64,000 nucleotides of DNA from Tridacna crocea (lineage: Eukaryota; Mollusca; Bivalvia; Cardiida; Cardiidae). The notes beneath the pieces were generated by a model that had not been told where the DNA came from, did not search any database, and saw only the letters and a list, made by a program, of their open reading frames with translations. Position 1 is the first letter of the stretch; every line of letters begins with the position of its first letter. Both the position numbers and the translations under genes were made by a program. The stretch is from assembly GCA_943736015.1 (NCBI GenBank), contig OX031072.1:10257501-10321500 (forward strand). Reading direction: 5' to 3'. This document shows, in pieces, positions 196 to 57,452 of this stretch.

Positions 196-365
196 ACATT
201 ATGATTTTCTACTTGCTCTCTAAGCAAAGATCAATTTAAAACAAGAGGACCATCATGGTTCTATATCACTCACCTGAGTAGTGTTACGGGAGACCACTCC
301 TTCCTGCATGGCATACTCCCGATTTAAATACAATACCTGGCTACTGCGTCAGGGAGATATCTCTT

Positions 366-420
366 TGGCTCAGTGGTTAGGGTATTGGCTTTGCGTCCGG
401 GAGTTCGGAGTTCGAATCCC
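366..420 (+). promoter_or_regulatory. tRNA-like Pol III promoter inside LTR 1
   Basis: A box TGGCTCAGTGG (366-376) and B box GTTCGAATCCC (410-420) with normal tRNA spacing. The T-arm sequence is tRNA-like, but the acceptor and anticodon stems do not pair well, so this is tRNA-derived and not a functional tRNA gene. Confidence 0.75.
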
Positions 421-592
421 GCTCCGATCCTTATTTCTGCCATGCATTTATTCATTTGTTTCTTTGTTACGGACTTCGTTCGTAAGATGGGGGCTCATCC
501 AGGATTGGCCATTGAGCCATTAATCCCATTTGTTGTCCAAAATCGGACTTCCTGCCTAATAAGGCTTTGAGTCATCAATAAATGATGACTTT

Positions 593-603
593 AAGAGGGG
601 GTG
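593..603 (+). other. Polypurine tract before LTR 2
   Basis: AAGAGGGGG followed by TG and then the LTR start. It is repeated at 915-925 before LTR 3. Just upstream is a short hairpin, AGTCATC / GATGACT, with an AATAAAT-type loop. Confidence 0.65.
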
Positions 604-687
604 TGTTACGGGAGACCACTCCTTCCTGCATGGCATACTCCCGATTTAAATACAATACCTGACTACTGCGTCAGGGAGATATCTCTT

Positions 688-742
688 TGGCTCAGTGGTT
701 AAGGTATTGGCCTTGCGTCCGGGAGTTCGGGGTTCGAATCCC
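688..742 (+). promoter_or_regulatory. tRNA-like Pol III promoter inside LTR 2
   Basis: Same position in LTR 2 (+322 bp). Here the T-arm is the cleanest: CGGGGTTCGAATCCCG can form a full stem-loop. Confidence 0.75.
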
Positions 743-809
743 GCTCGGTACCTTATTTCTGCCATGCATTTATTCATATGTTTCTTTGTTACGGACTTCG
801 TTCGTAAGA

Positions 810-827
810 TGGGGGCTCGTCCGGGAT
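810..827 (+). other. Primer-binding site complementary to tRNA-Pro
   Basis: TGGGGGCTCGTCCGGGAT is a perfect complement of the 3' end of animal proline tRNA (including CCA) and abuts the second LTR. The corresponding site in the first internal domain (488-505) has two G-to-A-type differences. Confidence 0.85.
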
Positions 828-1009
828 TGGCCATTGAGCCATTAGTCCCATTTGTTGTCCAAAATCGGACTTCCTGCCTAATAAGGCTTTGAGTCATCAA
901 TAAATGATGACTTTAAGAGGGGGTGTGTTACGGGAGACCACTCCTTCCTGCATGGCATACTCCCGATTGAAATACAATACCTGGCTACTGCGTCAGGGAG
1001 ATATCTCTT

Positions 1010-1064
1010 TGGCTCAGTGGTTAGGGTATTGGCTTTGCGTCCGGGAGTTCGGAGTTCGAATCCC
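1010..1064 (+). promoter_or_regulatory. tRNA-like Pol III promoter inside LTR 3
   Basis: Same position in LTR 3; A and B boxes are identical to LTR 1. Confidence 0.75.
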
Positions 1065-2894
1065 GCTCCGACCCTTATTTCTGCCATGCATTTATTTATT
1101 TGTTTCTTTGTTACGGACTTCGTTCGTAAGAGTAGTAAGCAGTAAAGGTCAACAATGAAGATAAATACCATATATCAAGTTCAAGGCCAAATGATAATGA
1201 AACTAGAGCAGCAAATTGTTGCAAGATATGCCCGTCTCAAAGCCAGTTGTCAAGGAGGTATAATAAATGCAAAGGGCAGGTAATGCAACAAATATGTTGA
1301 CAAAGTCTCAAGTCAATTTGACTTGAGGTAACAAAGTTCTGTTCCGGACAAGCAAGAAAATTAATACTGTATAAATGAAAATCAAAATGAAATCAGTGTA
1401 AAGTATTGTTCTTGAGCGTAATATTGCAACAAATACCAGTATGCATTCCAAGTTTGAAGTTGGTCTGACTTGAGATGACAAAGTTATATTCCTCACAAGC
1501 ACTAAATGCTGTAAAAATGAAGATCAAAGGGATATAACTCAAAGACAATACAAAGTAGAGTTAAAAATCTTGCACACTGCACTTCAAAATTTTGCAATAA
1601 ATAAGCGTACCATATTTCAAGCTATTCCTACTTAAGATGACAAAGTTTTGCTCCAGACAAGCAAGAAATGCTATAAAAATGAAGATGAAAGGGGGGAATA
1701 ACTCAAAATTCATGCTTGGTAGAGTTTTGGTTCTTTTGCACTGCACTCCGTATTATTGCAACAAACACAAATGCCAAGTTTTAGGTTTGGAGATGACAAA
1801 GTTATGCTCTGAACAAAGAACTACATGTATTTTAAAGAATTTTCATTTCAAGGGCAAATAACTCCAGCCATTCTATAAGACCAATAATAGAACCCGTCTG
1901 AGATCTTATCATCATATATATTTTGACCAAGTTTGGTGCTGATTGGCTAATAATTGTAGATGCTAAAGTGTAAACAAAAAGATTTTTAAAGATTTCCTTC
2001 TCTATGTGAAATCCGAGATACAACAACATAGGGCCAATTTCCATGCCAGGGCCATAATTTGAAGTATTTTGGTAGAGGGCGACTAGATGATGCTACATGC
2101 CAAATATGAAAGCTCTAGCCCTTACGGTTTGGGACAAGAAGATTTTTAAAGATTTTCCTCCTTATCTCTATGTGAAATCTGAGAAAAGGGCCAACTTCCA
2201 CACTGGAGCTATAATTTGAAGTTTTTTGGTAGAGGGCCACTAGATGATGCTACATGCCATATATGAGAGCTCTAGCCCTTAGGGTTTGGGACAAGAAGAT
2301 ATTTAAAGATTTCTTCTTTATTAGTAGAGGGCAACTAGATGATGCTACATGCCATAAATGAAAGCTCGAGCCTTTACGGTTTGGGACAAGAAGATTTTGA
2401 AAGATTTCCTTCTTTATCTCTATGTGAAATCCGAGAACCCACAACATAGGGCCAATTTCAATACCAACGCCATAATTTGAAGTATTTTGGTAGGGGGCGA
2501 CTAGATGATGCTACATGCCATAAATGAAAGCTCTAGCCCTTAAGGTTTGGGACAAGAAGATTTTGAAAGATTTCCTTCTTTATCTCTATGTGAAATCCGA
2601 GAACCCACAACATATGGCCAATTTCAATACCAGCGCCTTAATTTGAAGTATTTTGGTAGAAGGTCACTAGATGATGCTACATGCCAAATATGAAAGCTTT
2701 AGCCCTTACAGTTTGGGACAAGAAGATTTTTACAGTTTTTTTTCTCTTGGTTGCCATGGCAACCAGAGTTCTTCAATGAAATGTGGTTGTTAGTTTAGGA
2801 GGAGAATATTTTTTCTGTAATTGTGAACGGACGGACGACAGACATTGACCAATCACAATAGGTCACTCTGAGCACTTTGTGCTCAGGTGAACTA

Positions 2895-5595: not shown

Positions 5596-6282
5596 CTATG
5601 TTTCCCAGGCAAGTTTTGGAATTTCAGTATTACAGTTACCATGGTAAATATTGATGTGCCCTTCACATGTATAATACTGATCAAACACATCAGCGTAGCC
5701 ATGATTTCTCCACCACTGACAAAGCTGTCTGTTCCATGAACAAGGCAACACATGGAACAACTCTTCATTATCCAGTGAAATCAAACTGAAAAAATCTTGA
5801 TCCCCAAGGTGACCTTTAAAAATGTATTTTTCTGTTAACTGTTTGATTTTGTCTGCTGATACTAAACTGTTGTAAGTTTTGGAAGCTCTCATTCTGTCAA
5901 GATCAAGTAACAAAACTCCACTATTGAACCCAGTTAAACCGTCGGGAGGCGGGCTTCCAACTCTTGTGTCTTTGTGCTGGTTTCTGTACATGTGGAAATT
6001 GTGTCTATAGACAGGTTGCATGTCTCTGCCTATTCCAATGATATTCTCAGTGGTAAATCTATCAAAATGGTCATACAGTTCTTTTATATCAGCATTAAAC
6101 TTGAGATCAGCATCCAACATGATCACTTTATGAAGGTCTGGTAAAAGTCTGTGCATCACTATTGAAACAAAAAACAGAGCGTCACTGTAATAGGCACCAG
6201 GTTTGTAACTGAAATACTTCTGCATCTCTGACACTATATCGTGAGCTTGTTTAGCAAGGGAATCCACATCTAAATGAACAAC
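5596..6282 (-). CDS. XXYLT1: XXYLT1 coding exon 2 (catalytic domain)
   Basis: Terminal coding exon, phase 0. The acceptor TTCATTACAG lies at 6283-6292 on the minus strand and the stop codon TAG at 5598-5596. It encodes 228 residues beginning VVHLDVDSLAK and carries the complete glycosyltransferase core, which is divided among more exons in vertebrates. Confidence 0.92.
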   Translation of the reverse strand, partial: VVHLDVDSLAKQAHDIVSEMQKYFSYKPGAYYSDALFFVSIVMHRLLPDLHKVIMLDADLKFNADIKELYDHFDRFTTENIIGIGRDMQPVYRHNFHMYRNQHKDTRVGSPPPDGLTGFNSGVLLLDLDRMRASKTYNSLVSADKIKQLTEKYIFKGHLGDQDFFSLISLDNEELFHVLPCSWNRQLCQWWRNHGYADVFDQYYTCEGHINIYHGNCNTEIPKLAWET

Positions 6283-8821
6283 CTGTAATGAATACATATA
6301 ACTTACTTCATAATTTTCAACAAAGTTTCATGTGTACAGCTATATAAAAAATGATAAGGCCTAACAAAAAAAATCTATGTTAACGGTTTTGGTCTGAGAT
6401 GCTGTAGGTAGAGGAGGTAGGTCGGATAAAAAGTTTATGTTTAGCAGAATTTTCTAGATAAGGTCAGAAAACCCTTCATACAGATTTTTTTTTAAGGCCT
6501 TACAACTCTTGGCCATTCAGTTATGATGACAAATTTTAGATTCATTTGTGAAAGACGAAACCAAACTCCAGTCAGAGAATTGATAACTCTATAATAAATT
6601 ATGAAGGCATTTTATTCAACTTTTCTAAACTAAAAGTAATTGCAGATGACAAACATGGTTTGAATCACAGAATTTGTCTTAAATAAGGCAGAATACATTG
6701 CGGGAAAAGAAGAAAATGTGGGCTACTAACAATTCTTTCCAAATATGACTTGAAATACCTTCTTCCTCAATGTCATATAATCACCAAATCATTTTGCAAA
6801 GGATTAGCAAGATCTTTAATCTACTGTCCACTAGGAATAATTTCTTTCGTCCCTGTTCATCATTTTTTCAATGATGGTTATATGGAAAAGTAGCCAGTGG
6901 TTTGGATAAAATATTATGTAAAGCACTGGTAAAGGAAGTCTGAGGAAGCATGGGTACTAAAGTAGCACTGTTTGCCAAATATTATGAACTAAAATAATTT
7001 TGAAAACGGTGTTAAAAATAATGCAATCAATCACTAGATCCATATAACCCGTAGTGTTCAACAATCTATTGAATCAGAAAGTAGACTGGTCCTTCAACAT
7101 GTAGAAAATCAACTTATGGCGTTGTAATAGGACTTTTAAACCGAATCAACGGCACAGGCTGATCATCGCTTATTATTATCATCAGGAATGCAGGAAAAGT
7201 TTACTACATCGAAATAAGAAACAGGTTCAGAATGGGCAGTCTTACTCACCGATGAGATAATATTGGAAGTGTATACAATAGTCCTGTGTACTACGTCATA
7301 GCACTAATGAGATGCGATGTTATCACATGACTTTCTTGAAGACCTAGTTTTCTCCGATCTTATATATGTGTGTTTTGAGGGGTTATCCTTCATATTTCAA
7401 GTTATAAATGGTGAAAATTAACTATTTTTTAAACTTTACAGAGGCTTTAAGTCTTCAATATCAAAAGTTTCATGCCTCATAGAACTGTCCATAAATAATT
7501 TTAGAGATTTTGTACTGTCTATAAATAATTTTGGAGATTTTGTCAAAAAGTCTGTGAGGAACTGCCATGTCTTGGAACTGTATTGTTCCTTACTAACCCT
7601 TTATCAAATAATCTCTTATTAAGCTACATGTACCTGAATAAGATGGCTTTTGAAAACGTTGTTGGGGAAAGATGATAGTGCAGGAAACCATCACTTTCTC
7701 AAGGTTTCCCGTATTTTCTATCCAGCTTTGACTAATCCCTAGTACATGTACAGATAACTGTCCCCAAATGCGATGTTACTTTTTGACAGGTCACCTCTGG
7801 GTACTGTGACGACCAAGACAACCAGTTGAGAGTTCTGCACAGAGTTTAAACTCTCATAATGTCACAAATAGAGTACAAAACTAGGATTTAAACATACCTG
7901 TTGCTTGTGTATTTAATAATCCTTTGTTTGAAATACAAATATTTTCAATTTAATACATAAGAGAAAACCATGTATTTCATCTGTTACTCGAGTTACTTAC
8001 ATTCCCAAAAATACTCAAAATGGCCGCCTCACACGATAAATTTCGCCAGTATTTTTTCCAAGATTTACATGTTATAAATGACTTCCACAAGATTTTTAGG
8101 TTATGAAAGATTTAATTATTTGTTTTTGGTCATGTTAGTTACTTAAATTTAATTGCATTTGCTGCAATACAGGTTAAACGGACAACAGAGAAAGGTAGTA
8201 TAACGCTTTATCTTTGCCACTGGAAAATTTACGATGGACTTGAGATGGTAAGGCGTACATGAATGTCCAAATATGAAACAAATCACAGTAGTGTCTCATT
8301 ACTGAGATTAGACTAATCCCATGCTTTCAAATCAGACAAATTTAAAGTTTTGTTATCAGTTACGTAACTTACTGAATACTTACTGAATATTTTGACTTGT
8401 CAACTGCATCATGTAATATATCAGCAGCAAGTCTTTCACTGTCTTCATCCCCTAGAATGTGTAAATCTATTGGAACGGTAGAAAAGTTGAAAAGAGAACG
8501 AACTGTAGTTTTGAACTTCTCCTGTAACTTATAATTGTGTTTGGCCTTTGTAAATGTGATCATGACATCAATAGACGTAGACTTTGCATTCTCGCCTATC
8601 ATTTCTTCATTATCCGAAACATGGGTACCGTCCGAAACAACTGATAGTCTGTTCATGCTACCGTGGTCGTTGTCAGGGTGCCTATACTTTGTCGATATCT
8701 CTGTGAAAGTCGGAGATTTGAGCATTCTTCGAGCAACCACGAAGCAAATACCTATAAAAAGAATGATTCCAAGAATTTTTGTATATTTAGAACGGACGAG
8801 ATTTCTGTAGCAGACACCCAT
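5596..8821 (-). CDS. XXYLT1: Xyloside xylosyltransferase 1 (two coding exons)
   Basis: The joined exons (8821-8384, then 6282-5596) encode about 374 residues. XXYLT1 is a GT8-type retaining enzyme of the ER/Golgi lumen that adds the second xylose to O-linked xylose-glucose on Notch EGF repeats. Seen here: a short basic N-terminus, one hydrophobic segment (about residues 15-33, ILGIILFIGICFVVA) fitting a type II membrane anchor, a variable stem, then the catalytic domain. It has a DxD-type metal site as LDADLKF (Asp203/Asp205), GFNSGVLLLDLDRM, HLGDQDFF (about 304-311) and a C-terminal IYHGNCNT block, all familiar from animal XXYLT1 proteins. Vertebrate proteins are near 390 residues, so the length fits. 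An in-frame ATG at 8974 would add 51 residues with a second hydrophobic stretch. I prefer 8821 because it gives the usual short cytoplasmic tail. Family assignment is firm; the exact start is not. Confidence 0.93.
6283..8383 (-). other. XXYLT1 intron
   Basis: Single intron of about 2.1 kb. It contains decayed TTAA-MITE remnants (around 6590-6740 and 7593-7745), a faint SINE-like stretch near 6840-7000, and a short tandem repeat near 7465-7545 (two copies of a phrase around TGTACTGTCTATAAATAATTTT). I see no coding exon in it. Confidence 0.6.
7593..7745 (+). mobile_element. Decayed TTAA MITE
   Basis: CCCTTTATCA end and TTTTGAAAACGTTG remain; the centre is GGAAACC and the right third is lost. 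Confidence 0.5.
8384..8821 (-). CDS. XXYLT1: XXYLT1 coding exon 1 (anchor and stem)
   Basis: Encodes residues 1-146, ending DAVDKSKYS. The donor GTAAGT directly follows at 8383-8378 and joins in phase 0 to exon 2. A second GTAAGT lies 12 bases further on, but its use would put exon 2 out of frame. Confidence 0.88.
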
Positions 8822-15700: not shown

Positions 15701-18700
15701 ATGTGGAACAGTCTTAAATTTTATCTTCTGGTAAAGAGTTTAATGTATGATACATGCACATTTAAGATTTTTGTGTTGATCACTGTTGGAATTAATGTCA
15801 CATTTTCACATGCACAGGACAAAAGGAGGTAGCACCCTCAGGTACCTTAATACTTTGATCTTAGTTGATACTAAATATATTTAACTGTTTTTCCCCTTCT
15901 CTCATTCATTATGGCTTATAGTCTTTGATATCTTCAGACAAAAAAACTCTTGTTGGAGACTGTGTTTGAAAACATTAGAGGGAATTTAGTCAGTACCTGT
16001 AAATAGCACTGGCTCTCTTAAAAGAGGAAATGAAATTTTGAACTTTGATAAAAGACCAAACCTTGTGCTTAGTATGAGGGAAGGGAAACTCTAAATTGAT
16101 AGTTGTGTGGAGTTTCTAATACATGAATATTTCTTATTTGATACTTATCTATATTTTTATGTTGATGTTAGTAAATTCTTGTCATGTTGGGGCCAAATGT
16201 CTTCTAAATGCAATTGTTGCATTGATCACCTAGCTCTACATTTTGAATGTAAAGATTGCTGATATGCCAAACCATTTTGTTTCTTTTAATTAGAATTTTA
16301 ATAAACTGCTATGGCATTTATAATTTGAAGTAGAATACAGTTTAGGTTGGTTTGTGAGTATAGCCCCTGAAGATACTTGAATTGTCTGTTTGATTGGTCT
16401 TTTTGTCTTGAAATGCGGTGGATCTACTGGTAGCTTGACTGGTCCAATATGAGCTGCAACATGTGAAAAAGGACATTCCGACATTTGCGTATAGTGTCGT
16501 CTGAAATGAGCCTACGCAGGCTAATCCAACAGCACCTTTGTTTTTATGTAATTTACTGTTTTGTCTACTATAGCACAAAATCTAATCTTGTCATAAAGTG
16601 CCATCTTAGATTAGCCTTTGCGGACTGCACAGGCTGATCCGAGACGACACTTTATGTAAATGTCTAAATGCCCCTTTTCATGTGTTGCAAGCTATTTATT
16701 CACCTGTCTTAATCCTGCAAAATGTATGTGTAAGACAGAGCAGAAGTTTAAATCATGTTATCCATTCTTAATCCTTTACTACTTGTGTTGGACTCTGAAC
16801 AACATTGAGAGAAGAAGCCTTTTTCAAATATGTTACAGGAGATCACTCCTTCCTTACTGCATAGCTTTCCTGTGTAAAATCAATACCTGATATTAAAGTC
16901 AGAGAGAATTCTCTTTGGCTCAGTGGTATGTTATTGGTCTTTTAAACCTCAAAAAACGAGGATATTTGTCCCTTCAAGGGCTTCAATCCCGCCAGATGTG
17001 ATTTGTATTTGAGCTATGCATTTATTTGTTTCTTTGTTATGGACTTCATTCATAAGAGGTAGGAAAAGGAGAAAGTGCTGGTAACCAGGATTTTCAGTCA
17101 TATTTTGTTTTGTCATCTGTAAATGCTTTCAATTAGGACAAGTCTGAAGTTTTCTCATTTGGTCAAGAAATGAAGCTTAATGGCTTTTTCCTCCATTAAA
17201 AAAGCTTTTTGGGCTATTAACTGGTTACTTCCTGAAAGAAAAAAAGAAAAGGAAAACTAGGTGACAGAATATAACTTTGTAAAATATAGAGAACGATATT
17301 TGTAAAGTTTTAGTTTATTAAAAAATTATGGGAAAAGGAGAAATTGCTCTCAAAATGCTTCACCTTTTATGCGCGGAAGGGTTTTATTTTGTAATGGCGC
17401 TTTCCGTCTGTCCGTTTGTTGGCAATTTCTTCTCCTACACCTTTCATCGGAATAAGTTCAAACTTACCTCAATGAGTCTCTATGATGTGCAGTTGTGCAT
17501 GTGATTCTGAAAATTTGGATCTCTTTAGGCTCTCATTTTACTCAGGTGTATATGCGCTGCTCTGCGAAGCTCTTGTTCCCACAGTGTGGTCAAGAGTGGT
17601 GAACTGAAACCTTCAAAATGTTCTCTTTCAGAGGTATTCACTTGATTCATGCTCTATGACAGTTCTATTTAATTCAAATAGATTTAAGTCATGCTTTGAC
17701 AAAAGGGAGCTTATTGCCAGGATCTTCATGATCCATGGTTCCAAGCAAGCCACCAGTACTTAAGGATCTGTAATATCCACTCTTTTTTAACCCTCCCATA
17801 TGATAAAATTTTAGACTGGTCCATATCGAAAGCATTTGCAGACAAAAAATTAAATGTGGCAGAAATACTTTGATTTTTATGTGAAAGATTAGAAAATATT
17901 GTGGGAAAAAGAAAAAAAACGCTGGTTACAAGCATTTTCTCTTTTTTTCCCATTATGTTTTCAAAGGCCTTCTTCCTAGGGTCCTAAAAACCCAGGATTT
18001 TTTAGTAAAGAGTTAAATAACTGATTCAATCATAAAATAGACTGGTCCTTAGGCATACAAAAAATAGACAAATAGCGAAAAGTTTCGGCCCAGGTAAGCC
18101 TGCGCAGGCTGACCTAGGTTAATAACTGAATACTATTCGCAGATGCATTAAGGCCCCATTTCAAAGAGCATGGCTCTTTTTGTTTTATATAAGTTTGTTC
18201 AAATACGTATGAGGCATGGTTTGGAAAAGGAGGTCTAAAACATCTCAATGACGCGTGATTTTAGCAAGCCATCACATTGTTATGAATTCATAAAATCCAC
18301 TCAGTCTAGCAATGGACAGAATCTTGCAATACATGTGGAATGGTCCTTTCAACGGAGAAAACTTCTGAATGGCATAAAGTTTCGAATCATCTCAGCCTGT
18401 ATTAACTCTCTACCACACAATCCCAGCTTTTAACGACTCTAAATAAAAAAGCCATTGAAAACATTGTTGGAAAAGGAGAAAATGCTGGTAACCAGCATTT
18501 TCTCCTTTTCCCACAATGTTTTCTACACTTCCCAGATCAAATATCATTTTTTAGGCATATTAATTTTGTTGTCTGCAAATGCCTTCAATTTGGACCAGTC
18601 AAAAAATTTGTTCAGTAAAGAGTTAAATAGGCAGACTGACATTGGTTGATACTATTTGTAGATGCATTAGACATTCTTTCAGACCATTGCTCACATTGTT

Positions 18701-21700: not shown

Positions 21701-24438
21701 TTTTTTTTTTTATAATATAGTGGTTTTTTTTTAACTTTTTAACACACTACAAGCATTTTCTCCTTTCCCTGCATTGTTTTCTACCCATTCAAAGACAGTT
21801 TTCACTATTGGACCAGTGTTTATCGTCTGCAAATGTGTTGGATTTTAACTAACGATACACAAAAATTTTGTGATGTTGTAAAGAGTTAAGAAAAAATCTG
21901 AAACAAAATAATGTATTCTTACAGAAAATACCACAAGTGCATAGCTATAAACTGTAGAAAGTTTTAAGTGCACCCAACAGCAACAAGACTGTGTTGAACT
22001 GGTTTTTCCTGCCTAATTGGTGAATTGCCAAAAATATTTTCCATGTACCATTTGGCAAAGGATGATTAATCCTTTAGCAAACAATCCCTGGTTTTTATGG
22101 CCCCTGAGATAGAAGCCTTTTGAAAACATTATGGGAAAAGTAGAAAATGCTAGTAACCAGCATTTTCTCCTTTTCCCACAATGTTTTCTACCCTGTTGGA
22201 AACAAATTTCAATTTCTGAGTTGTGTTAATTTTGTCCTCTGCAAGTGTTTTGAATTTGGACCAGTCTTAAATTTTGTTGTTTGGTTAACCAAACAATCCC
22301 TGGTTTTTACGACACAGAGATAGAAGCCTTTAGCTGGTAACCAGCATTTTCTCCCATTCCCACAATGTTTTCTACCCTGCTAGAAACAAATTTCATTTTC
22401 TTTCAGTTTGGACCTGTCTAAAAATTTTTTGTTTGGTAAAGGGTTAGATACACGAGCAAGTTACTTGACTATTATATTTTGACTTCCTTTTTTCCAGAGT
22501 CAGTATTCCAAGGTCCACTCTAATGGCCCCACATCAAGTGAAGCCACATCGTAGAAACAGTTTTGATGCTGCAGACACAATGGCACTCTCAAGGGTAGGT
22601 AAATCCTGAATGACTGAAAAGCACCATAGAGTCAGTTTGTGAGGTTTTATTTTCATTTTCTCTGAAAAACCATTATATAATCAGTAGTAAGACTCTCTTC
22701 AAAATAGATTGAGAGGCAGTTTTTACAAACCATTATTATAAGCTTTCAACAATTACAGACAATGGTTTCTTGGAAAGCAGTGTCTATCTTTCTATCTTTA
22801 CAAATTCACAGTAGCCCTGGGCTGGTGAGGCAGGGGATGAGAGAGAGAGAGAGAGCGAGCGAGAGAGCTTATGTTGATAAAAGTTATTGGTTTACTGAAC
22901 ATAGCACTTTTATACTAGCCAAACTATACTAAATAAGATAAAGAGCATACATTTACCCTGTACTAAATGGCAAAATTTGAGACTGGTCCAAATTGAGAAC
23001 ACTTGCAGACGACAAAATGAATGCAAGTCAATAATTGAAATTTGTTTCCAGCAGGATCGAAAACATTGTGGGAAAAGGAGAAAATGCTATCATTTTCTCC
23101 TTTTCCCACACTGTTTTGATAGGCTTCTTTCTCAGGGTAGTTAAAAGCTGGGATAGTGTGTAAAGAGTTGAAAGATAGGGCAGTACCATTTTGTACCAAT
23201 ATGGCAAACATCAAGGAAGAATCATTTTAAAATTTTATATTCAGCTAGTCTTTTTCCTCACAATGTATTCATATCTGTTATCTGGTAGTACATAATAGAT
23301 ATTATTGATCTGTTATGGGTGAATCTGTCACCAAACTGTGCTACCTTTTCATGACCCGGAGAAAAAGGACTTCTGAAAACTTGTAAGAAAAGCAGTGGCA
23401 GTATTTCCAACTTTTCTGACAGAAAAATGACATTGAGATACATTTTTATTTGTTATTTGCGAATGCTTTAAACTGAAAGAAGTCTACAAATTTGTTTTTT
23501 AATAAACAATTAAATGTCTGAAATCACTATTAGTCTATCCATTTGTTTCAGCATTGCTTGAAGGGATGGAACACCTCACAACCTTCCATGATGCCAGCAG
23601 CCTCTACTATTGCACTCAGGGATTCAACAGTGGGCATCAAATTTTCCTTGAAAACAGTAAGAACATACATGTACTATATCCTCGTTGTAGCTTTACTTCA
23701 CACCCTGATGCTCTTTCCTTACTTCAACTAGAGAGAATATACAGTAAACTGCACAAAACATGTTCTTTTGAAGCTGAACTCTTTGCCACACATCAGAAAT
23801 CTTCCCCCGGGTCGGTAACAGTCAGGATTGTGTGGGATTGTGTTGTAAAGGGTTATCTTGTTAATATTTTAACAGCCTTGAAACCAAATACTTTTCAAAA
23901 CATTGAAAAAGAGGAAATTGTTGTTAGACATCCCAATTAAATGCATTCTCAGACAAAATTCAAAGCTTTCCATTTAGTTGAGACTAAAATTTATCATATA
24001 GGAAAGAGTTATTACAAGTAAAAAGAACTGAATCAAAAGGAGATTTTGCTCTGTACAAGTGATTTCTCCTCAGACCCCTAGGCATTCAAAAGTGCTCTGC
24101 CACAAAACAAAAAGTTTGGAATACAAAAATTCTTTTCTTTTTTTCTCAAGACACTGCATGATGCTGAGAAACTAGCAGCCAACTATCCATACGAATGGAA
24201 TGCATCTGAACAGACAATCAGTAGACCTGTGATTAAACCAATGTACCGTCCCGAGACAAACTATATGAATGGTACATGGCCATACAACATTCGTGATACT
24301 ACTACAGACAGATCCTACACACAGGCTTCGGCCAGTCTCCAACAAGCTACTGATGATCTTTTGAACTCTACCTACTCTTTAATGTATGAGATGAAGAGAT
24401 TGAAGAATGAAAGAAGTGATCATCCATTGCGTGTGTAA
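9466..24438 (+). CDS. MIIP: Migration and invasion-inhibitory protein homologue
   Basis: Exons 9466-9722, 11694-12321, 13198-13436, 13854-13924, (possible 15818-15841), 20945-21086, 22498-22594, 23552-23656 and 24151-24438 join in one frame to about 608 residues (616 with the microexon), longer than the human protein of about 390. Identity rests on two blocks shared with vertebrate MIIP: GYDWIAALLDNDPQ...ETFFEDLKEFRKVN (around residues 332-365) and VRVSIPRSTLMAPHQ...[22 protein letters not shown]. Vertebrate MIIP binds IGFBP2 and HDAC6 and restrains cell migration; its role in molluscs is unknown. The N-terminus is a charged, probably helical segment (LREQSKLLLRKLKEKQGRLQ); exon 2 is acidic, serine-rich and likely disordered. 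The ATG at 9466 follows a splice acceptor, so the 5' UTR is split. Introns are packed with MITEs and other repeats. Confidence 0.9.
9845..10073 (-). mobile_element. TTAA palindromic MITE
   Basis: Complete, perfect palindrome; MIIP intron 1. Confidence 0.9.
10085..10287 (-). mobile_element. TTAA MITE with half palindrome deleted
   Basis: Only 12 bp after the previous copy. The left arm is missing, leaving GAAAACATTACCAGC. Confidence 0.75.
10768..10824. repeat. GATCAGACTGCAC palindromic repeat
   Basis: Core: GTGTAGATCAAGATCAGAC, TGCACAGATTGTGCA and the reverse arm GTCTGATCTCTGATC. One of about ten dispersed copies; the wider element is perhaps 200 bp. Confidence 0.7.
11275..11470 (-). mobile_element. 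TTAA MITE with collapsed palindrome
   Basis: Palindrome reduced to AAAATGATGGTAACCAAAATG; TTAA ends intact. Confidence 0.75.
11694..12321 (+). CDS. MIIP: MIIP coding exon 2
   Basis: Begins after TTTTTATTTTTAG; the first base completes an Arg codon from exon 1 (SR-LHQRSRSKEDK). Ends HRSNK before the donor GTAAAG, phase 0. It encodes a long charged, low-complexity region without a recognised domain. The open frame running on to 12459 is intron. Confidence 0.85.
12822..13095 (+). repeat. GAGCCATGCTCT repeat, near full length (MIIP intron 2)
   Basis: Runs from AAAAAGGGGCTTAATACATC through TATGGATCCATAG, the central palindrome CAGCCTGTGCGGACTGCGC, to AGAGCATGGCTCA. The GGGCTTAATGCATC phrase contains a TTAA used by MITEs in other copies. 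Confidence 0.65.
13198..13436 (+). CDS. MIIP: MIIP coding exon 3 (GYDWIA block)
   Basis: Acceptor TTCTTTGTTATAG, donor GTGAGT after ATGGA, phase 2. Encodes SRVSFRSPTRE and then the diagnostic GYDWIAALLD block. Its reading frame meets TGA only by running into the donor. Confidence 0.9.
13483..13660 (+). mobile_element. Decayed TTAA MITE
   Basis: AAAATGCTGGTAATCAGCAATT centre and GACAACCGTGAGTATGAGG flank; ends lost. MIIP intron 3. Confidence 0.5.
13854..13924 (+). CDS. MIIP: MIIP coding exon 4
   Basis: Acceptor TATGTTTTCAG, donor GTAAGT, 71 nt. Encodes GPMELWEHPEREPSPVQK and a few more residues, phase 2 in and phase 1 out. No domain is recognised. Confidence 0.8.
14100..14331 (+). repeat. 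GAGCCATGCTCT repeat
   Basis: AAAGAGGTTTAATGCATCTC at the left and TACAGATGCATTC at the right, with a decayed centre. A MITE follows directly. Confidence 0.5.
14332..14562 (+). mobile_element. TTAA palindromic MITE
   Basis: Near complete; right end AGGTAAAGAGTTTAA. Confidence 0.8.
14669..14832 (-). mobile_element. TTAA MITE, left end decayed
   Basis: Centre GGTTACTAGC; right end GGTAAAGGGTTAA kept. Confidence 0.65.
14996..15224 (-). mobile_element. TTAA palindromic MITE, ACTG-arm variant
   Basis: Arms read AAAACACTGTGGG and CCCATAGTGTTTT instead of ATTG/CAAT, so both arms changed. Confidence 0.88.
15243..15476 (+). mobile_element. tRNA-derived SINE
   Basis: A-box-like TTCAGTTGGTAGAATA and B-box-like GGTTCAGATTTCC head, then a body with GATAGTCATTGCAACAG, CTCCAGGAAAGC and GTGCACTGGC ending in an ACAAACACAATCC tail. 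It lies in a MIIP intron between two MITEs. Confidence 0.65.
15561..15743 (+). mobile_element. TTAA MITE, left end lost
   Basis: Begins at TTCTTTTGAAAACATTG; centre GGTTACTAGC; ends GGTAAAGAGTTTAA. Confidence 0.65.
15818..15841 (+). CDS. MIIP: Possible 24-nt MIIP microexon
   Basis: Flanked by CATTTTCACATGCACAG and GTACCT. It is exactly 24 nt, enters and leaves in phase 1, and would insert about eight residues (RQKEVAPS) without disturbing the frame between exons 4 and 5. No homologue supports it, so it could be chance. Confidence 0.35.
16449..16697. mobile_element. TGCAACACGCG long-TIR repeat, copy 1
   Basis: Inverted ends of about 55 bp carrying TGCAACATGTGAAAAAGG, then ACATTTGCGT and AGTGTCGTC, and their reverse at the right end. 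The interior has AGGCTGATCC-type palindromic pieces. No coding capacity. Confidence 0.7.
16768..17180 (+). mobile_element. TTAA MITE split by a solo LTR
   Basis: Left piece 16768-16830 (TTAATCCTTTAC to TTTTTCAAATA), right piece from 17058 (GGTAGGAAAAGGAGAAAG...). The LTR at 16831-17057 is the younger insertion. Confidence 0.65.
16831..17057 (+). mobile_element. Diverged solo LTR of the miniature LTR element
   Basis: Starts TGTTACAGGAGATCACTCC and ends GGACTTCATTCATAAGA, matching both ends of the 206-bp LTR. It is about 20 bp longer because of extra sequence between A box and B box. The A box TGGCTCAGTGG (16916-16926) is intact; the B box has decayed to GCTTCAATCCC. It splits a TTAA MITE (16768-16830 / 17058-17180) inside a MIIP intron. 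Confidence 0.75.
17369..17577 (+). mobile_element. Short helentron-like element inside a MITE
   Basis: Runs from ATGCGCGGAAGG to GCGAAGCTCTTGTT with a TCCGTCTGTCCGTTTG stretch near its start. It interrupts a MITE palindrome between CACCTTTT and CCCACAGTG with no target duplication. The 3' end CTCTTGTT is shared with the elements at 240, 19619 and 49731. Confidence 0.6.
17690..18176 (+). repeat. GAGCCATGCTCT repeat split by a MITE
   Basis: Left part to 17786 and right part from 18017 (GACTGGTCCTTAGGCATAC, CTGCGCAGGCTGACC, AGAGCATGGCTC). The MITE at 17787-18016 lies between. Confidence 0.6.
17787..18016 (-). mobile_element. TTAA palindromic MITE
   Basis: Complete but aged; nested in a GAGCCATGCTCT repeat. 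Confidence 0.8.
18228..18700 (+). repeat. GAGCCATGCTCT repeat split by a MITE in its central palindrome
   Basis: Left part ends CTCAGCCTGTA and right part resumes TAGGCAGACTGACATTG, on either side of the MITE 18402-18626. Confidence 0.6.
18402..18626 (+). mobile_element. TTAA palindromic MITE
   Basis: Complete; nested in the palindrome of a GAGCCATGCTCT repeat. Confidence 0.85.
18754..18966 (+). mobile_element. TTAA palindromic MITE
   Basis: Complete ends; centre GGTAATC. Confidence 0.85.
19619..20072 (+). mobile_element. Helentron/pearl-like element in a MIIP intron
   Basis: Starts TATGCCCGTCGAAGATGGGA and ends GACGGGCGTATCTTGC...CCGCTCTTGTT, so GCCCGTC is inverted near both ends. It contains two tandem units of about 150 bp, each with ACTATACTAGCTAGG and TTATGAAATTTCATGGGTGG. 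Confidence 0.65.
20718..20795 (-). mobile_element. TTAA MITE fragment
   Basis: GGGAAACAATGTAGG and GGTAGGGGTTTAA only. Confidence 0.45.
20945..21086 (+). CDS. MIIP: MIIP coding exon 5
   Basis: Acceptor TATTATAG, donor GTAGGT, 142 nt, phase 1 in and phase 2 out. Encodes VKPYTVNDRLFAEPIKRSLF followed by a lysine/glutamate stretch and PRFV. The YTVNDRLF part resembles the vertebrate segment upstream of the VRVSIP block. Confidence 0.88.
21100..21328 (+). mobile_element. TTAA palindromic MITE
   Basis: Complete, 13 bp after MIIP exon 5, so it forms the start of the following intron. Centre GGTTACC although the flanks are in plus order. Confidence 0.9.
21446..21668 (+). mobile_element. TTAA palindromic MITE, ACTG-arm variant
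   Basis: Left arm AAAACACTGTGG, right arm CCCACTGTTTT. Confidence 0.88.
21731..21889 (+). mobile_element. TTAA MITE, left half deleted
   Basis: AAGCATTTTCTCC onward to GTAAAGAGTTAA. Confidence 0.6.
22066..22288 (+). mobile_element. TTAA palindromic MITE, first of an abutting pair
   Basis: Its right TTAA (22285-22288) is also the left TTAA of the next copy. Confidence 0.85.
22285..22447 (+). mobile_element. TTAA MITE, second of an abutting pair
   Basis: Left palindrome arm deleted (AAGCCTTTAGCTGGTAACC); ends GGTAAAGGGTTAG. Confidence 0.75.
22498..22594 (+). CDS. MIIP: MIIP coding exon 6 (VRVSIP / RRNSFDA block)
   Basis: Acceptor CTTCCTTTTTTCCAG, donor GTAGGT, ends in phase 0. Encodes the most conserved MIIP segment, with VSIPRSTLMAPHQ and [16 protein letters not shown]. 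Confidence 0.92.
22839..22867. repeat. (GA)n microsatellite
   Basis: Interrupted GA run in the MIIP intron between exons 6 and 7. Confidence 0.85.
22953..23171 (-). mobile_element. TTAA palindromic MITE
   Basis: Palindrome tip deleted (GGAGAAAATGCTATCATTTTC), still symmetric. Confidence 0.75.
23552..23656 (+). CDS. MIIP: MIIP coding exon 7
   Basis: Acceptor TTTGTTTCAG, donor GTAAGA, 35 codons in phase 0. Begins HCLKGWNTSQ, matching the HCL-GW start of the vertebrate C-terminal part; the rest is variable. Confidence 0.85.
24151..24438 (+). CDS. MIIP: MIIP terminal coding exon
   Basis: Acceptor TCTTTTTTTCTCAAG, stop TAA at 24436-24438, 95 residues. Encodes TLHDAEKLAANYPYEW and a C-terminal helix-prone tail ending SDHPLRV. 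A sense AATAAA at 24555-24560 lies inside the following MITE. Confidence 0.85.
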   Translation, partial: TLHDAEKLAANYPYEWNASEQTISRPVIKPMYRPETNYMNGTWPYNIRDTTTDRSYTQASASLQQATDDLLNSTYSLMYEMKRLKNERSDHPLRV

Positions 24439-32863: not shown

Positions 32864-35800
32864 GTAATTTAATTTGTGTTTCACTTGGCCCGGCTTCAAA
32901 AATAGTTATGACGCTTAATAGTTCATTTGGTCCCATTAAGGGCTTGAAACCAGAGAAAAACTAGTTCGAATTCTCAGTAGGGCCTATTTATTTTTTTGTG
33001 AAAGAACGATGATGATTGATGATGTCATGGTGACAGGGCACATTCCTCTTCCACTACTTATCATTTATTTTTTGGACAGTTACTATATATGAGAAAGCAG
33101 CCACTGGCTGTAATAGGAAAAGAAACCCTAGGAAAACTGTGGATAGTTGCACTGGTTGTCAAAACTTGAGGACTGGGTGGGAAGAGTTAGCTGGTATTGC
33201 TAAATCAATGATACTGGCTTTCTTGATTATTTAGCAAAAAAGAGTAACTATGTATAAACTAATTCAAACATATTCTAAATATGCGGCTGCTACACATGAT
33301 TTACAGTGCTGCCGAATACACTGTTACGTGTACCACACAATCCAAAACGGTAGCAACCCCGAGGAGTAAGGTTCTTGAAAACATTGTCGGAAAAGTAGAC
33401 TGCTGGTAACCAGCATTTTCTCCTTTTTCCACAAAGTTTTCTTTCCTATCAAGGACAAGTTATTTGAACCACATCTAACGTATAGTCTGCAAGTGCTTCC
33501 GGTTTTGGAAAAGTGGAAAAAATTTTCATGTGTTAAAGGATTCATGTGTAAAAATTTATCAATTTACCACATGCTTCTACAATGGTCTTCTTCTGTGTGG
33601 CGTAGGTGGGGTTGCCTGTACAGCTGACATATCCAAACAGCGTGGAACATTTGTCAACTATGGGGTTCAGGGAGGTACACCAACCTACAGAAACATGATG
33701 AATCTCATTCATGAACACGGCTTTGAAACATCCCCTGTACACATGATGATTTCATTTGGAAAAGATAAAACAGCTTGGACTAACTATTCTGGCTCAGACC
33801 TGACCGATAGGCTTCGTAAGGATATTGCCAGGTTTGAAGGCACTTTGAAGTTCATTAATAGACTGGAAGCTATTTTCATATTTTTGCCCATTTCCAAAGT
33901 TCTGAAATGGTTTGGCTACTCTGAGGAGTTCATGTATCACATGGTGTTTCCTCTAACAGCATTGTTCTTTGGAACAGGAAACCAAACTCCAAATGTCTCT
34001 GCTGCAATTGTTGCTCGTGTTTTTCTCGATGATGACCTTAGACTCTTTGATTATGATACAGAAAGATTATTGAGTCAAACTCCTGAAATGTTTGCATTTC
34101 CTAATCTAGAAGAAATGTATGAGGTAATCATAAAGAAATCTGGAGCTGTGTTCAATAGAAACAGACCCCTACAGAAAGTTGACAGAGTTGGCGGGAAGGT
34201 TTATGTCACAGATGGGAATGGTGAAACAGAGGTATTTGATGAGATTGTGTTTGCTTGTGATGCTGAAACTGCTCTGAAAACCCTGGAGAAGCCTTCTTTT
34301 ATGGAACAGCAAGTGCTGGGAAATGTACGCTACTTTAATGACCTCATAGTCACACACGATGATGAAGAGTACATGAGAGAACACTATGAACTGCATAAGG
34401 ATATTGATCAATATTTGGTCAGAACTGACAAAAAGGATTTCTCCAAAATAGAAATGTCTTTTGATTTATCAAACTATCAGAAGCAGTTAAAAGCAATTAA
34501 AGATGAGCAACAGCATGTTTTTCAGACCATTTTCTTGGATGACCAGTGTATGGACAAATGGACATATAAGAAAATCAAGCCAGATAAAATCATGTTAGAG
34601 CACTGGTGGAGGCAGTTTTCTCATACATGGCGTCATTTTGCATTTTCAGTTCCAGTTATGCGATATATTCAAGGTCATCAGAACACATATTACTGTGGAT
34701 CATATACACTCGTCAACACACATGAAGCTGCTGTCATGTCAGGCCTTGCGGCAGCATACAGACTTGGAGCTCCGTACCCATTTGATCATGACAAATTAGC
34801 TCAGAAGCAGTTCAACAACTATTTAATGGTCATCCATGGAAAACCTAGAAAATATGGCTTGAATGTAGATACAGTGAAGGCAGGGTTTCTTGGCTTCTTC
34901 ATGGCCATCTTTGCGCTGGTGTCACTCTTTGCTCGAGTCCTTGTAGACTGGTGGACACATGATTCCAAACCATTGTGAGTAACAGTTTCTCTTTTGATGC
35001 ATTTATCATCCCTTTATCGGGTTAAACCCATGTTTAGACAACTTGAAAGAGAGTGCATTTTCTCCTTATCTTTTACAAAGATTGCTCTTCTTTCAATAAA
35101 GAGCTGTCTTTCAGTCTTAACTTCTGCTGTCTAGAAACCATATAATGACTTAATTTTTACCAAAACAACAGAATTTTAGACTGGTCCAAATTAACATAAC
35201 ACAAAAATAGAAAGGGTGGAAAACCTGGTGGGAAATGGAGAAAATGCTAATAACCAGCATTTTCTCCTTTTCTCACAATGTTTTCAAAAGGCTTCTATCT
35301 CAGGTTTGTAAAAACCAGGGATTGTTTAGTACATGTACAGGGTAAAGATACAGTTTTGAAATGCTGATGAAAATTGACGGCAAAAGCGTTTTTCAATGAA
35401 TACAATACTATGGTGAGTACTTTTGCAGTGTTGGGTTTTTTTTTGTTTTAATCAGTCAAGTATTATGATAATGATATTTCAAAAAATAACTATTTGGTGC
35501 CTCCGAAGTTTGCAGTCATTTACTTATTAGACATGCAATAAGCTTACTGGACATTTTCATTCAAGAAAATGACCATGATAATTGCAATGTCATTGTTCCT
35601 TTTTATCTACAGTGATTCAGCAAAACGGTCATCATCATTGAAGATCTAAGATCAGACTGCACATTTTGTGCCTACTTGATCTAAACTGGCCACAAAAGAT
35701 ACCATGAAAGTGAAAGAATGAATAGCTACTTATGTTGCAGTAGAATTATAAATGCAAAGAATAGTATAGAAAAGGGAGCAATTTCAAAGAACTCTAATTT

Positions 35801-40012: not shown

Positions 40013-40241
40013 TTAACTCATTACCAAACGACAAAATTTTAGACTTGTCCAAATCGAAAGCATTTGCAGACGACAAAATAAAAGTGACTGAAAATTTGAA
40101 ATTTGTTTTGTGAAGGGTAGAAAACATTGTGGGAAAAGGAGAAAATGCTGGTTACCAGCATTTTCTCCTTTTTCCACAATGTTTTCAAAAGGCTTCTTTC
40201 TCAGGGGCGTCAAAAGTAGGGATTGTGTGGTAATGGGTTAA
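40013..40241 (-). mobile_element. TTAA palindromic MITE
   Basis: Complete; a stub of another copy (TTAACCCTTTACCAGAC) precedes it at 39974. Confidence 0.9.
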
Positions 40242-42329: not shown

Positions 42330-43896
42330 GGTCGAGTCTGTGATTTTGTTATTGGTATAGTTTAACCCTTTAGCACACAAGCCCGTGTCCCCGTTTGTGA
42401 AAGGAGGAACTGTCTCGGTGAAGCCACTGTGATACACCTACTCTATGTGTTCGGCGAGTGGATGAATGATCATCAGTCGCATGGCCAGGGTCCTTGTCGA
42501 TGTGGGAGAGACCAGCCAGAAGCTTGAAAACCACTTTACGTGCACCTTCTTTGTTTAGTGTGCGAGGGGGAAAAATTTGGTACTTTCTCCCAGATTAATT
42601 AATTGCTGTTCATAGGTTTTGAAGCCACTCAGAATGCGCCCCCTTCCTCCGTCTCCCCACTTAGGGAGGAGAGGAACGGTCATCAATGGCGAAGGCCGAG
42701 CCTGTGTTGCCACTGGCAGCCATCACCCGCTTCGCGCTCAGAAGGGGACGCTCTTTCTCGTCCTCGTGGTTTCAGTTCTCGTCAGTTTTGTCTGACGACC
42801 TCTTGATACATACTATAGAAATGATCCCTAAGAGTATGATCTTAATATTACGGGTGTAATTTGAGTTTATAAAGAACTTCTTCATTGTTCATGCTACAGG
42901 TTGAATGTGTTTTCTGTTGCATTTTCTGTGTAATCTGACTGTGTGTCAATGTTAAATGTAACTGAAGTACTTCAGTATTTGTTTCTTTTTTTTGGAAAGT
43001 TGTCACGTTCTAGGAAATTTAGGTAGTTTGTGTTGAATTGGCACTTACCTCCCTTTTAAGAGCCCAAAACATAACACCCCACCCACAACGCCCACGTTTG
43101 GCATTTCTCATGATTCAAAGTTATTTATAGATGTTAGCCTTTGATAGTGTATGAAATTCACGGTGTGTATACATGTAGTCAACCATGCGGTTCTCGACAT
43201 AGATCTACTATCTGTCCGGCGATCAAGATTAGACTTTTCACGTTCTGCGCATATCAGGATCAGATTGTACATTGATTCCAGCTATGCTGCCAGAACCGAA
43301 ACAGCTGTGAAATTACAATTTAGTGATCTATCTTTGTTCGCTGCCAAACAAATTGGTTTGATGTCGATCTATTTCGAGGGCTAAAATTATACATTTTCTT
43401 TGTGTTTGAATCTGATTTTGGTCAAGTTTACTGTCAGGTAGTGCATGTGATCAATGGTGTAGATCAAAGATCAGACTGCACGTTTTGCAGTCTTGTATTG
43501 ATCCACGTTGTATTACATAGGGTACTCGAGGCAAATCATAATTTACACTCTACCTAACATTGTGTTACGCATGCGTATTAGATAAATACTTAGTTGTGAA
43601 AACGAAAGTAGAACGAATGCTGTTGAATAATTATTGAACTGATTAATAAAATCTGTGTTCCCTAGGTTATTTATCGGGCCATCGATACATTACACACGCC
43701 ATCCACAAAGATATCCAAGGCGACATATTGAGAGTGGAATAGATCTAGGCATATAGTTAACCCTAGTCTCAATAATGAGGCGCTCCGGTGATCTTTTTCA
43801 TATTTGGACATTTACAGGGGCGACCAGTCGAAAAGTAGCATCGCCTTTGGGGACAGTTATCTGTACTTTAGTTAACCCCTACTAGAACTAAGCAGC

Positions 43897-45781: not shown

Positions 45782-47351
45782 TTCGGTTGAGTCTGTGATT
45801 TTGTTATTGGTATAGTTTAACCCTTTAGCACACAAGCCCGTGTCCCCGTTTGTGAAAGGAGGAACTGTCTTGGTGAAGCCACTGTGAGTCACCTACTCTT
45901 GTGTTCGGCGAGTGGAAGAATGATCATCAGTCGCTTGGCCAGGGTCCTTGTCGATGTGGGAGAGACCAGCCAGAAGCTTGAAAACCACTTTACCTCTTTG
46001 TTTAGAGTGCGAGGGGAAAAAGTTGATACTCTCTCCAGTGTAATTGTTGTTTTTTAAGTTCTGAAGCCACTCAGAATGCGCCCCCTTCCTCCGTCTCCCC
46101 ACTTAGGGAGGAGAGGAACGGTCATCAATGGCGAAGGCCGAGCCTGTGTTGCCACTGGCAGCCATCACCCGCTTCGCGCTCAGAAGGGGACGCTCTTTCT
46201 CGTCCTCGTGGTTTCAGTTCTCGTCAGTTTTGTCTGACGACCTCTTGATACATACTATAGAAATGATCCCTAAGAGTATGATCTTAATGTCTTGGGTGTA
46301 ATTTGAGTTTATAAAAAACTTCTTCATTGTTCACGCTACAGGTTGAATGTGTTTTCTGTTGCATTTCCTGTGTAATCTGACTGTGTGTCAATATTGAATG
46401 TAATAGAAGTACTTCAGTATTTGTTTCTTTTTTTTGGAAAGTTGTCACGTTCTAGGAAATTTAGGTAGTTTGTGTTGAATTTACACTTACCTCCCTTTTA
46501 AGAGCCCAAAACATAACACCCCACCCACAACGCCCACGTTTGGCATTTCTCATGATTCAAAGTTATTTATAGATGTATTAGCCTTTGACAGTGTATGAAA
46601 TTCACGGTGTGTATACATGTAGTCAACCATGCGGTTCTCGACATAGATCTACTATTTGTCCGGCGATCAAGATTAGACTTTTCACGTTCTGCGCATATCA
46701 GGATCAGATTGTACATTGATTCCAGCTATGCTGTCAGAACCGAAACAGCTGTGAAATTACAATTTAGTGATCTATCTTTGTTCGCTGCCAAACAAATTGG
46801 TTTGATGTCGATCTATTTCGAGGGCTAAAATTATACATTTTCGTTGTGTTTGAATCTGATTTTGGTCAAGTTTACTGTCAGGTAGTGCATGTGAAGGTAT
46901 AGATCAAAGATCAGACTGCAGGTTTTGCAGTCTTATATTGATCCACGTTGTATTACATAGGGTACTCGAGGCAAATCATAATTTACACTCTACCTAACAT
47001 TGTGTTACGCATGCGTATTAGATAAATACTTAGTTGTGAAAACGAAAGTAGAACGAATGCTGTTGAACAATTATTGAATTGATAATAAAATCCGTGTTCC
47101 CTAGGTTATTTATCGGGCCACCGATACATTACACACGCCATCCACAAAGATACCCAAGGCGACATATTGAGAGTGGAATAGATCTAGGCCTACAGTAAAC
47201 CCTAGTTTCAATAATGAGACGCTCCGGTGATCTTTTTCATATTTGGACATTTACAGAGGCGACCAGTCGAAAAGTAGCATCGCCTTATAGACTATCTGTA
47301 CTTTAGTTAACCCCTATAAGATCTACTAAGCAGCACACAATATAGAGATAC

Positions 47352-52265: not shown

Positions 52266-53063
<798 letters not shown>

Positions 53064-57158: not shown

Positions 57159-57224
57159 GGAACCTTTCCACAGTAATGGTTATTTGCTAGGATATAGGAG
57201 AAAATCTGACCTTTCCAGTGTTAT

Positions 57225-57452
57225 TTAACCCTTTACCAAATGACAGAATTTTAGACAGGTCCAAATTGAAAGCATTTGCTGACAACAAAATGAACATAAC
57301 TCAAAAATTCAAATTTGTTTCTAGTAGGGTAGAAAACATTTTGGGAAAAGGAGAAAATGCTGGTTACCAGCATTTTCTCATTTTCCCAAAATGTTTCCAA
57401 AAGGCGTCTTTCACTTGGTCGCAAAAACCACGGATTGTTTGGTAAAGGTACA
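57225..57452 (-). mobile_element. TTAA palindromic MITE, TTTT-arm variant
   Basis: AAAACATTTTGGG / CCCAAAATGTTT, the same paired change as 29999-30226 but in the opposite orientation. Confidence 0.88.

What the first reader, a model, noticed from the sequence alone, without database searches (positions are those of the whole stretch)
282..1131. Miniature LTR retrotransposon whose LTR contains a tRNA-like Pol III promoter
Seen: three 206-bp LTRs and two 116-bp internal domains at an exact 322-bp period, a proline-tRNA primer-binding site, purine tracts before LTRs 2 and 3, and a flanking GTAG direct repeat. Each LTR also has an A box (TGGCTCAGTGG) and B box (GTTCGAATCCC) with tRNA spacing. Known: TRIM elements form such tandem arrays, and plant Cassandra TRIMs carry 5S rRNA with its internal Pol III promoter in the LTR. 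I know of no described animal TRIM with a tRNA-like LTR. Inference: the element may be transcribed by Pol III, or a SINE head was captured by an LTR element.
Basis: partly seen in the sequence, partly recalled or inferred. Interest (0 to 1): 0.88.

Follow-up and report, generated by a model that had tools for sequence, protein, structure and literature searches.

The report
Clam mini-retrotransposon with tRNA-like promoter
A tiny non-coding LTR retrotransposon in a clam-lineage bivalve carries a tRNA-like start signal in its ends; this kind of element (Helenus) was described in 2024, so it is a new member of a known kind, in a bivalve group not listed there.

Summary
Window 282-1131 is LTR-INT-LTR-INT-LTR (206/116/206/116/206 bp, 322-bp period). 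It has an 18/18 tRNA-Pro primer-binding site, purine tracts before LTR2 and LTR3, a flanking GTAG repeat, and A/B boxes 44 bp apart in each LTR. That argues against a mere tandem satellite.

Kojima 2024 (PMC10886601) named such elements Helenus and reports them from six animal phyla, including 51 bivalve families, with 4-bp target duplications, tRNA-Pro among the primers, and tandem arrays in zebrafish.

Two details go beyond what I read there. Two genes place the host with Mya, Mactra and venerid clams (Imparidentia), whereas the paper's bivalve hosts are all Pteriomorphia. The sense strand has no TTTT (the Pol III stop): unit 1 has 11 T-runs of exactly three and none longer. A, G and C runs show no significant cap. 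This fits Pol III read-through, but it is one family and a post-hoc test.

Verdict: a new member of a known kind. Pol III transcription is inferred, not shown; genome-wide copies could not be checked.

The parts
282..487 (+). LTR1 (206 bp)
366..376 (+). A box TGGCTCAGTGG in LTR1 (also 688-698 and 1010-1020)
410..418 (+). B box GTTCGAATC in LTR1 (also 732-740 and 1054-1062)
488..603 (+). INT1, internal domain (116 bp), PBS copy with 16 of 18 matches at 488-505
593..601 (+). Purine tract AAGAGGGGG before LTR2 (second copy 915-923)
604..809 (+). LTR2
810..925 (+). INT2, internal domain (116 bp)
810..827 (+). tRNA-Pro primer-binding site, 18 of 18
926..1131 (+). LTR3
278..281 (+). GTAG, left copy of the presumed 4-bp target duplication
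1132..1135 (+). GTAG, right copy
16831..17057 (+). Old solo LTR of the same family, about 69% identical to LTR1, inserted in another dispersed repeat

Best explanation
A Helenus-type TRIM: a 528-bp non-autonomous LTR retrotransposon, here in tandem form (three LTRs, two internal domains), in an imparidentian (heterodont) bivalve. Shown from sequence: LTRs, tRNA-Pro PBS, purine tract, a 4-bp flanking repeat, A/B boxes in each array LTR, and a second LTR insertion elsewhere. Inferred mechanism: Pol III starts near the tRNA-like head inside the 5' LTR and reads through the terminator-free internal domain and 3' LTR. It stops in flanking DNA, giving an RNA with LTR sequence at both ends. A Gypsy-type helper supplies particle, reverse transcriptase (primed by tRNA-Pro) and integrase. 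The three-LTR form arose by recombination with a sister copy, since the outer LTRs match each other better than the middle one (inferred).
For: Array anatomy. PBS 18/18. A/B boxes in 3 of 3 array LTRs and no other pair in the window. Solo LTR starting TGTTAC and ending TAAGA like the array LTRs, whose joined flanks match uninterrupted copies of its host repeat across the junction. No AATAAA or ATTAAA in the three array LTRs. No TTTT on the sense strand: unit 1 expects 3.12 runs of four or more T and has 0 (33 of 3000 shuffles as low) with 11 runs of exactly three (29 of 3000 as many); unit 2 expects 2.62 and has 0 (73 of 3000) with 9 runs of three (141 of 3000); A, G and C runs show no significant cap, C also having none but in 789 and 867 of 3000 shuffles. 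Published Helenus agrees in size, 4-bp TSD, tRNA-Pro priming, Gypsy link and tandem arrays.
Against: Only two insertions seen; the solo copy has no intact A/B pair, no visible target duplication, one TTTT at 16940 and an ATTAAA. LTR ends TG...GA, not TG...CA, and the purine tract is two bases off the LTR. TTTAAATA, 43 bases upstream of the A box in LTR1 and LTR2 but changed in LTR3, could serve Pol II; AATAAA is present in each internal domain. No transcript data; no helper seen; membership by sequence to a named Helenus family not tested.
Confidence: 0.87

Rival explanations
1. An ordinary Pol II-transcribed TRIM that carries a dead SINE remnant in its LTR: TTTAAATA acts as TATA box and the tRNA-like part does nothing.
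For: TTTAAATA 43 bases before the A box in LTR1 and LTR2; AATAAA in the internal domain; tRNA-like part does not fold or score as tRNA; the solo LTR lacks an intact A/B pair.
Against: No AATAAA or ATTAAA in the array LTRs; both boxes intact in 3 of 3 array LTRs; T-runs capped at three; the 18 columns covering the A box are invariant even in the old solo LTR.
Confidence: 0.2
2. A tandem tRNA-derived SINE or SINE-derived satellite, with the LTR look an accident of tandem repetition.
For: Tandem arrangement at an exact 322-bp period; tRNA-like boxes.
Against: 18/18 PBS directly after the LTR, purine tract before it; a separate solo copy that begins and ends at the LTR borders and lacks the internal domain.
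Confidence: 0.03
3. A variant of biv-TRIM, the bivalve TRIM of Satovic 2019.
For: Similar LTR length (206 against 202-218 bp), tandem and solo forms, heterodont hosts.
Against: Internal domain 116 against 77-80 bp; biv-TRIM's conserved 14-base internal segment and GGGGAGA tract are absent (best match 6 mismatches in 14); biv-TRIM has no clear PBS. The biv-TRIM LTR itself was not compared.
Confidence: 0.03

Closest known systems
Helenus (Kojima 2024, PMC10886601; group TRIMp3)
   Same: TRIM with tRNA-like A/B boxes in the LTR, PBS and PPT, 4-bp TSD in animals, tRNA-Pro among bivalve primers, total size 311-1263 bp, mostly not a functional tRNA, tandem arrays in zebrafish LTR-11_DR.
   Different: Bivalve hosts listed there are all Pteriomorphia; this host groups with Imparidentia. 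Sequence relation to any named family not tested (Repbase and the paper's supplement not seen).
Cassandra (plants)
   Same: TRIM with a Pol III promoter in the LTR; long tandem arrays (PMC7215508: search listing and start of abstract only).
   Different: 5S rRNA-derived. According to Kojima's introduction (passage) its RNA ends in the 5S sequence of the 3' LTR; this element has no TTTT at all on the sense strand.
biv-TRIM (Satovic 2019, PMC6934838)
   Same: Bivalve TRIM of similar LTR length (202-218 bp), tandem and solo forms, present in heterodonts.
   Different: 77-80 bp internal domain, no clear PBS, PPT GGGGAGA and a conserved 14-base internal segment, both absent here. No tRNA-like LTR is mentioned in the first part of the Results and the Discussion, which are what I read.

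Membership tests
Helenus | tRNA-like sequence (A and B box) within the LTR | tested here: met
   3 of 3 array LTRs; the solo LTR keeps the A box, B box decayed
Helenus | two LTRs flanking a short non-coding internal part, under 1000 bp in the first screen | tested here: met
   528 bp LTR-INT-LTR; screen limit
Helenus | PBS complementary to a tRNA 3' end (animals) | tested here: met
   18/18 tRNA-Pro in INT2, 16/18 in INT1
Helenus | polypurine tract before the 3' LTR | tested here: met
   AAGAGGGGG, two bases from the LTR
Helenus | 4-bp target duplication (animals) | tested here: inconclusive
   GTAG on both sides of the array; none visible at the old solo LTR
Helenus | many dispersed copies in the genome | tested here: inconclusive
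   2 insertions in 64 kb; the own-genome search did not complete in 10 tries
Helenus | PBS region shared with an autonomous Gypsy (animals) | not testable with these tools
   no bivalve genome collection or Repbase held
Helenus | sequence similarity to a published Helenus consensus | not testable with these tools
   supplement look-ups capped at 0; Repbase not held
TRIMp3 | actual Pol III transcription | not testable with these tools
   only indirect: T-run cap, no LTR poly(A) signal
biv-TRIM | 77-80 bp internal domain with PPT GGGGAGA | tested here: not met
   116 bp; GGGGAGA absent from the array
tRNA-derived SINE | no LTR, PBS or PPT | tested here: not met
   LTRs, PBS and PPT present

The most novel reading that the evidence does not exclude
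Helenus is older in bivalves than the published origin in Pteriomorphia, or moves between bivalve lineages. Its members are true Pol III read-through retrotransposons, selected to keep every sense-strand T-run at three or fewer across LTR and internal domain, so that the RNA ends in flanking DNA, unlike Cassandra, which stops inside its own 3' LTR.
Probability: 0.35. Interest if true: 0.5.

Novelty: new member of a known kind. Interest (0 to 1): 0.3.

Why it matters
It adds an imparidentian bivalve to the hosts of Helenus, so the published date of origin in Pteriomorphia may be too young, or transfer between lineages may have occurred. It also suggests a simple sequence test, absence of TTTT on the sense strand, for whether tRNA-headed TRIMs are really made by RNA polymerase III, a point that Kojima 2024 leaves unproven.

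Tried and rejected
Real tRNA gene: rejected. Fold of LTR2's tRNA-like stretch: no better than shuffles. biv-TRIM: rejected on internal length, PPT, PBS and the 14-base segment. Copies in other collections: exact patterns found 0 in viral contigs and 0 in genome contigs, and a 528-base blastn against phages found none. These are viral, prokaryote and phage collections, so this says little. A free-standing tRNA-like SINE in the window: the tRNA-like stretch of LTR1 hits only the three array LTRs and the solo LTR. Comparing solo and array LTRs for selection on the boxes: dropped, because old copies decay neutrally.

Host: the METTL1 tree of 43 rows was not decisive. The window grouped with unnamed rows at 88/75, outside the Mya-Mercenaria group. 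The amine-oxidase tree of 20 rows and the xylosyltransferase tree of 21 rows both place it with Imparidentia. In the trees I used selected rows, not all of the 120 listed per search.

Counting TTTT over LTR-INT-LTR (2 of 5000 shuffles free of it; 0 of 3000 from base 347 on) overstates the case because the LTR is counted twice; the single-unit figures are the ones to use. The comparison with other 322-base stretches of the window (3 of 193 on +, 2 of 193 on - without TTTT; 11 of 614 overlapping ones) is biased, since the element is less AT-rich than the window.

Full report
What is there. The window holds, at 282-1131, a 322-bp tandem array of about two and a half units: LTR1 282-487, INT1 488-603, LTR2 604-809, INT2 810-925, LTR3 926-1131. 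Directly after LTR2 comes TGGGGGCTCGTCCGGGAT, the same 18 letters that a murine leukaemia virus paper calls the tRNA-Pro primer-binding site (PMC1769482; one passage seen). INT1 matches 16 of the 18. Before LTR2 and LTR3 lies AAGAGGGGG, with TG between it and the LTR. GTAG flanks the array on both sides. The only stop-to-stop frame of at least 90 aa that touches the array has 98 aa and runs out of it; I see no gene.

The promoter-like part. Each array LTR has TGGCTCAGTGG and, 44 bases on, GTTCGAATC. Under one fixed pattern these three are the only A/B pairs in 64 kb on either strand; 5 of 200 shuffled windows have any pair. The stretch is not a recognisable tRNA gene: ARAGORN 0, no Rfam tRNA match in the region or the window, fold z-score -0.32 for LTR2's stretch.

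A second insertion. A pattern search and blastn found a 227-bp solo LTR at 16831-17057, about 69% identical to LTR1 over 237 columns. It has the same TGTTAC start and TAAGA end, and an unbroken run of 18 invariant columns that includes the A box. It sits inside a dispersed repeat with dozens of matches in the window. The joined flanks align across the junction to uninterrupted copies such as 35301-35240 and 29168-29107 at 79%. No target duplication is visible there, its B box is decayed, and it has a TTTT at 16940. So of two independent insertions one has both boxes intact and one has the A box only.

How the array arose. LTR1 and LTR3 differ at 3 of 206 sites, while LTR2 differs from LTR1 at 8 and from LTR3 at 10. 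The outer pair are the sisters. The middle LTR with one internal domain was probably added by recombination with another copy (inference).

Is it made by Pol III? There are two indirect signs. The array LTRs have no AATAAA or ATTAAA. On the sense strand unit 1 has no run of four or more T but 11 runs of exactly three; 33 of 3000 dinucleotide shuffles lack longer runs (mean 3.12). For unit 2 it is 73 of 3000 (mean 2.62), with 9 runs of three. A and G runs are as expected; C runs of four or more are also absent, but so they are in 789 and 867 of 3000 shuffles. TTTT is the usual Pol III stop (recalled). The first TTTT after LTR3 is at 1590. This is a post-hoc test on one family, and the two units are not independent. 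Against it stand the TTTAAATA motif in LTR1 and LTR2 and the AATAAA in each internal domain.

Host. The amine-oxidase-like protein at 33479-34975 is 77, 76 and 76% identical to Mercenaria, Mactra and Mya proteins and 62% to those of Pinctada and Mytilus. In a tree of 20 rows it falls with the first three and five unnamed rows at 100/100, apart from Pinctada and Mytilus. The xylosyltransferase-like protein at 5596-6324 (-) is 77% identical to Mya, 75% to Ruditapes, 71% to Mactra and to Dreissena polymorpha, 70% to Potamilus, and 64-65% to Argopecten, Pecten and Pinctada. In a tree of 21 rows it falls with Mya, Ruditapes, Mactra and Dreissena at 96/98, a rough value. Mya and Ruditapes are Imparidentia, Pinctada is Pteriomorphia. 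The METTL1 tree of 43 rows was not decisive.

What is known. For Kojima 2024 (PMC10886601) I read the abstract, Methods, Results, Discussion, figure legends and tables, and passages from other parts. Helenus is defined there as TRIMs with tRNA-derived sequence in the LTR, found in fungi, animals and plants, with six animal phyla. In bivalves 51 families are reported from five orders of Pteriomorphia, with tRNA-Pro among the primers; Gypsy is the likely helper and animal TSDs are 4 bp. Ruditapes, Dreissena, Venerida, Mercenaria, Cardiida and Heterodonta do not occur in the main text. Searches for Helenus with retrotransposon, TRIMp3, and Helenus with Bivalvia and two broader searches listed no report of Helenus from heterodonts in the open-licence library. 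The supplement and Repbase were not seen, so the family may be registered there. For biv-TRIM (PMC6934838) I read the first part of the Results and the Discussion; it is a different bivalve TRIM.

Limits. The own-genome search did not complete in ten tries, so copy number, target duplications across copies and the helper are unknown.

Noticed in passing
window 42624-42843 and 46066-46285, - strand: Two U3 snoRNA genes with equal scores (157.9 bits) in a roughly 3.4-kb direct duplication; the three 300-nt stretches reported are 97-99% identical.
   Followed up: partly
whole window, e.g. 52-195, 22154-22288, 40013-40157, 57224-57369: A dispersed repeat with a foldback core (like GGAAAAGGAGAAAATGCTGGTTACCAGCATTTTC) matches dozens of places in both orientations; read as protein it gives recurring ENIVGKGENAGNQHF-like frames.
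   Followed up: no
window 570-590 and 892-912: A perfect 8-bp hairpin just before each purine tract, with AATAAA across its loop.
   Followed up: no
window 52266-53060, 33479-34975, 5596-6324 (-): Host genes: tRNA (guanine-N7) methyltransferase, amine-oxidase-like flavoprotein, xyloside xylosyltransferase-like protein.
   Followed up: partly
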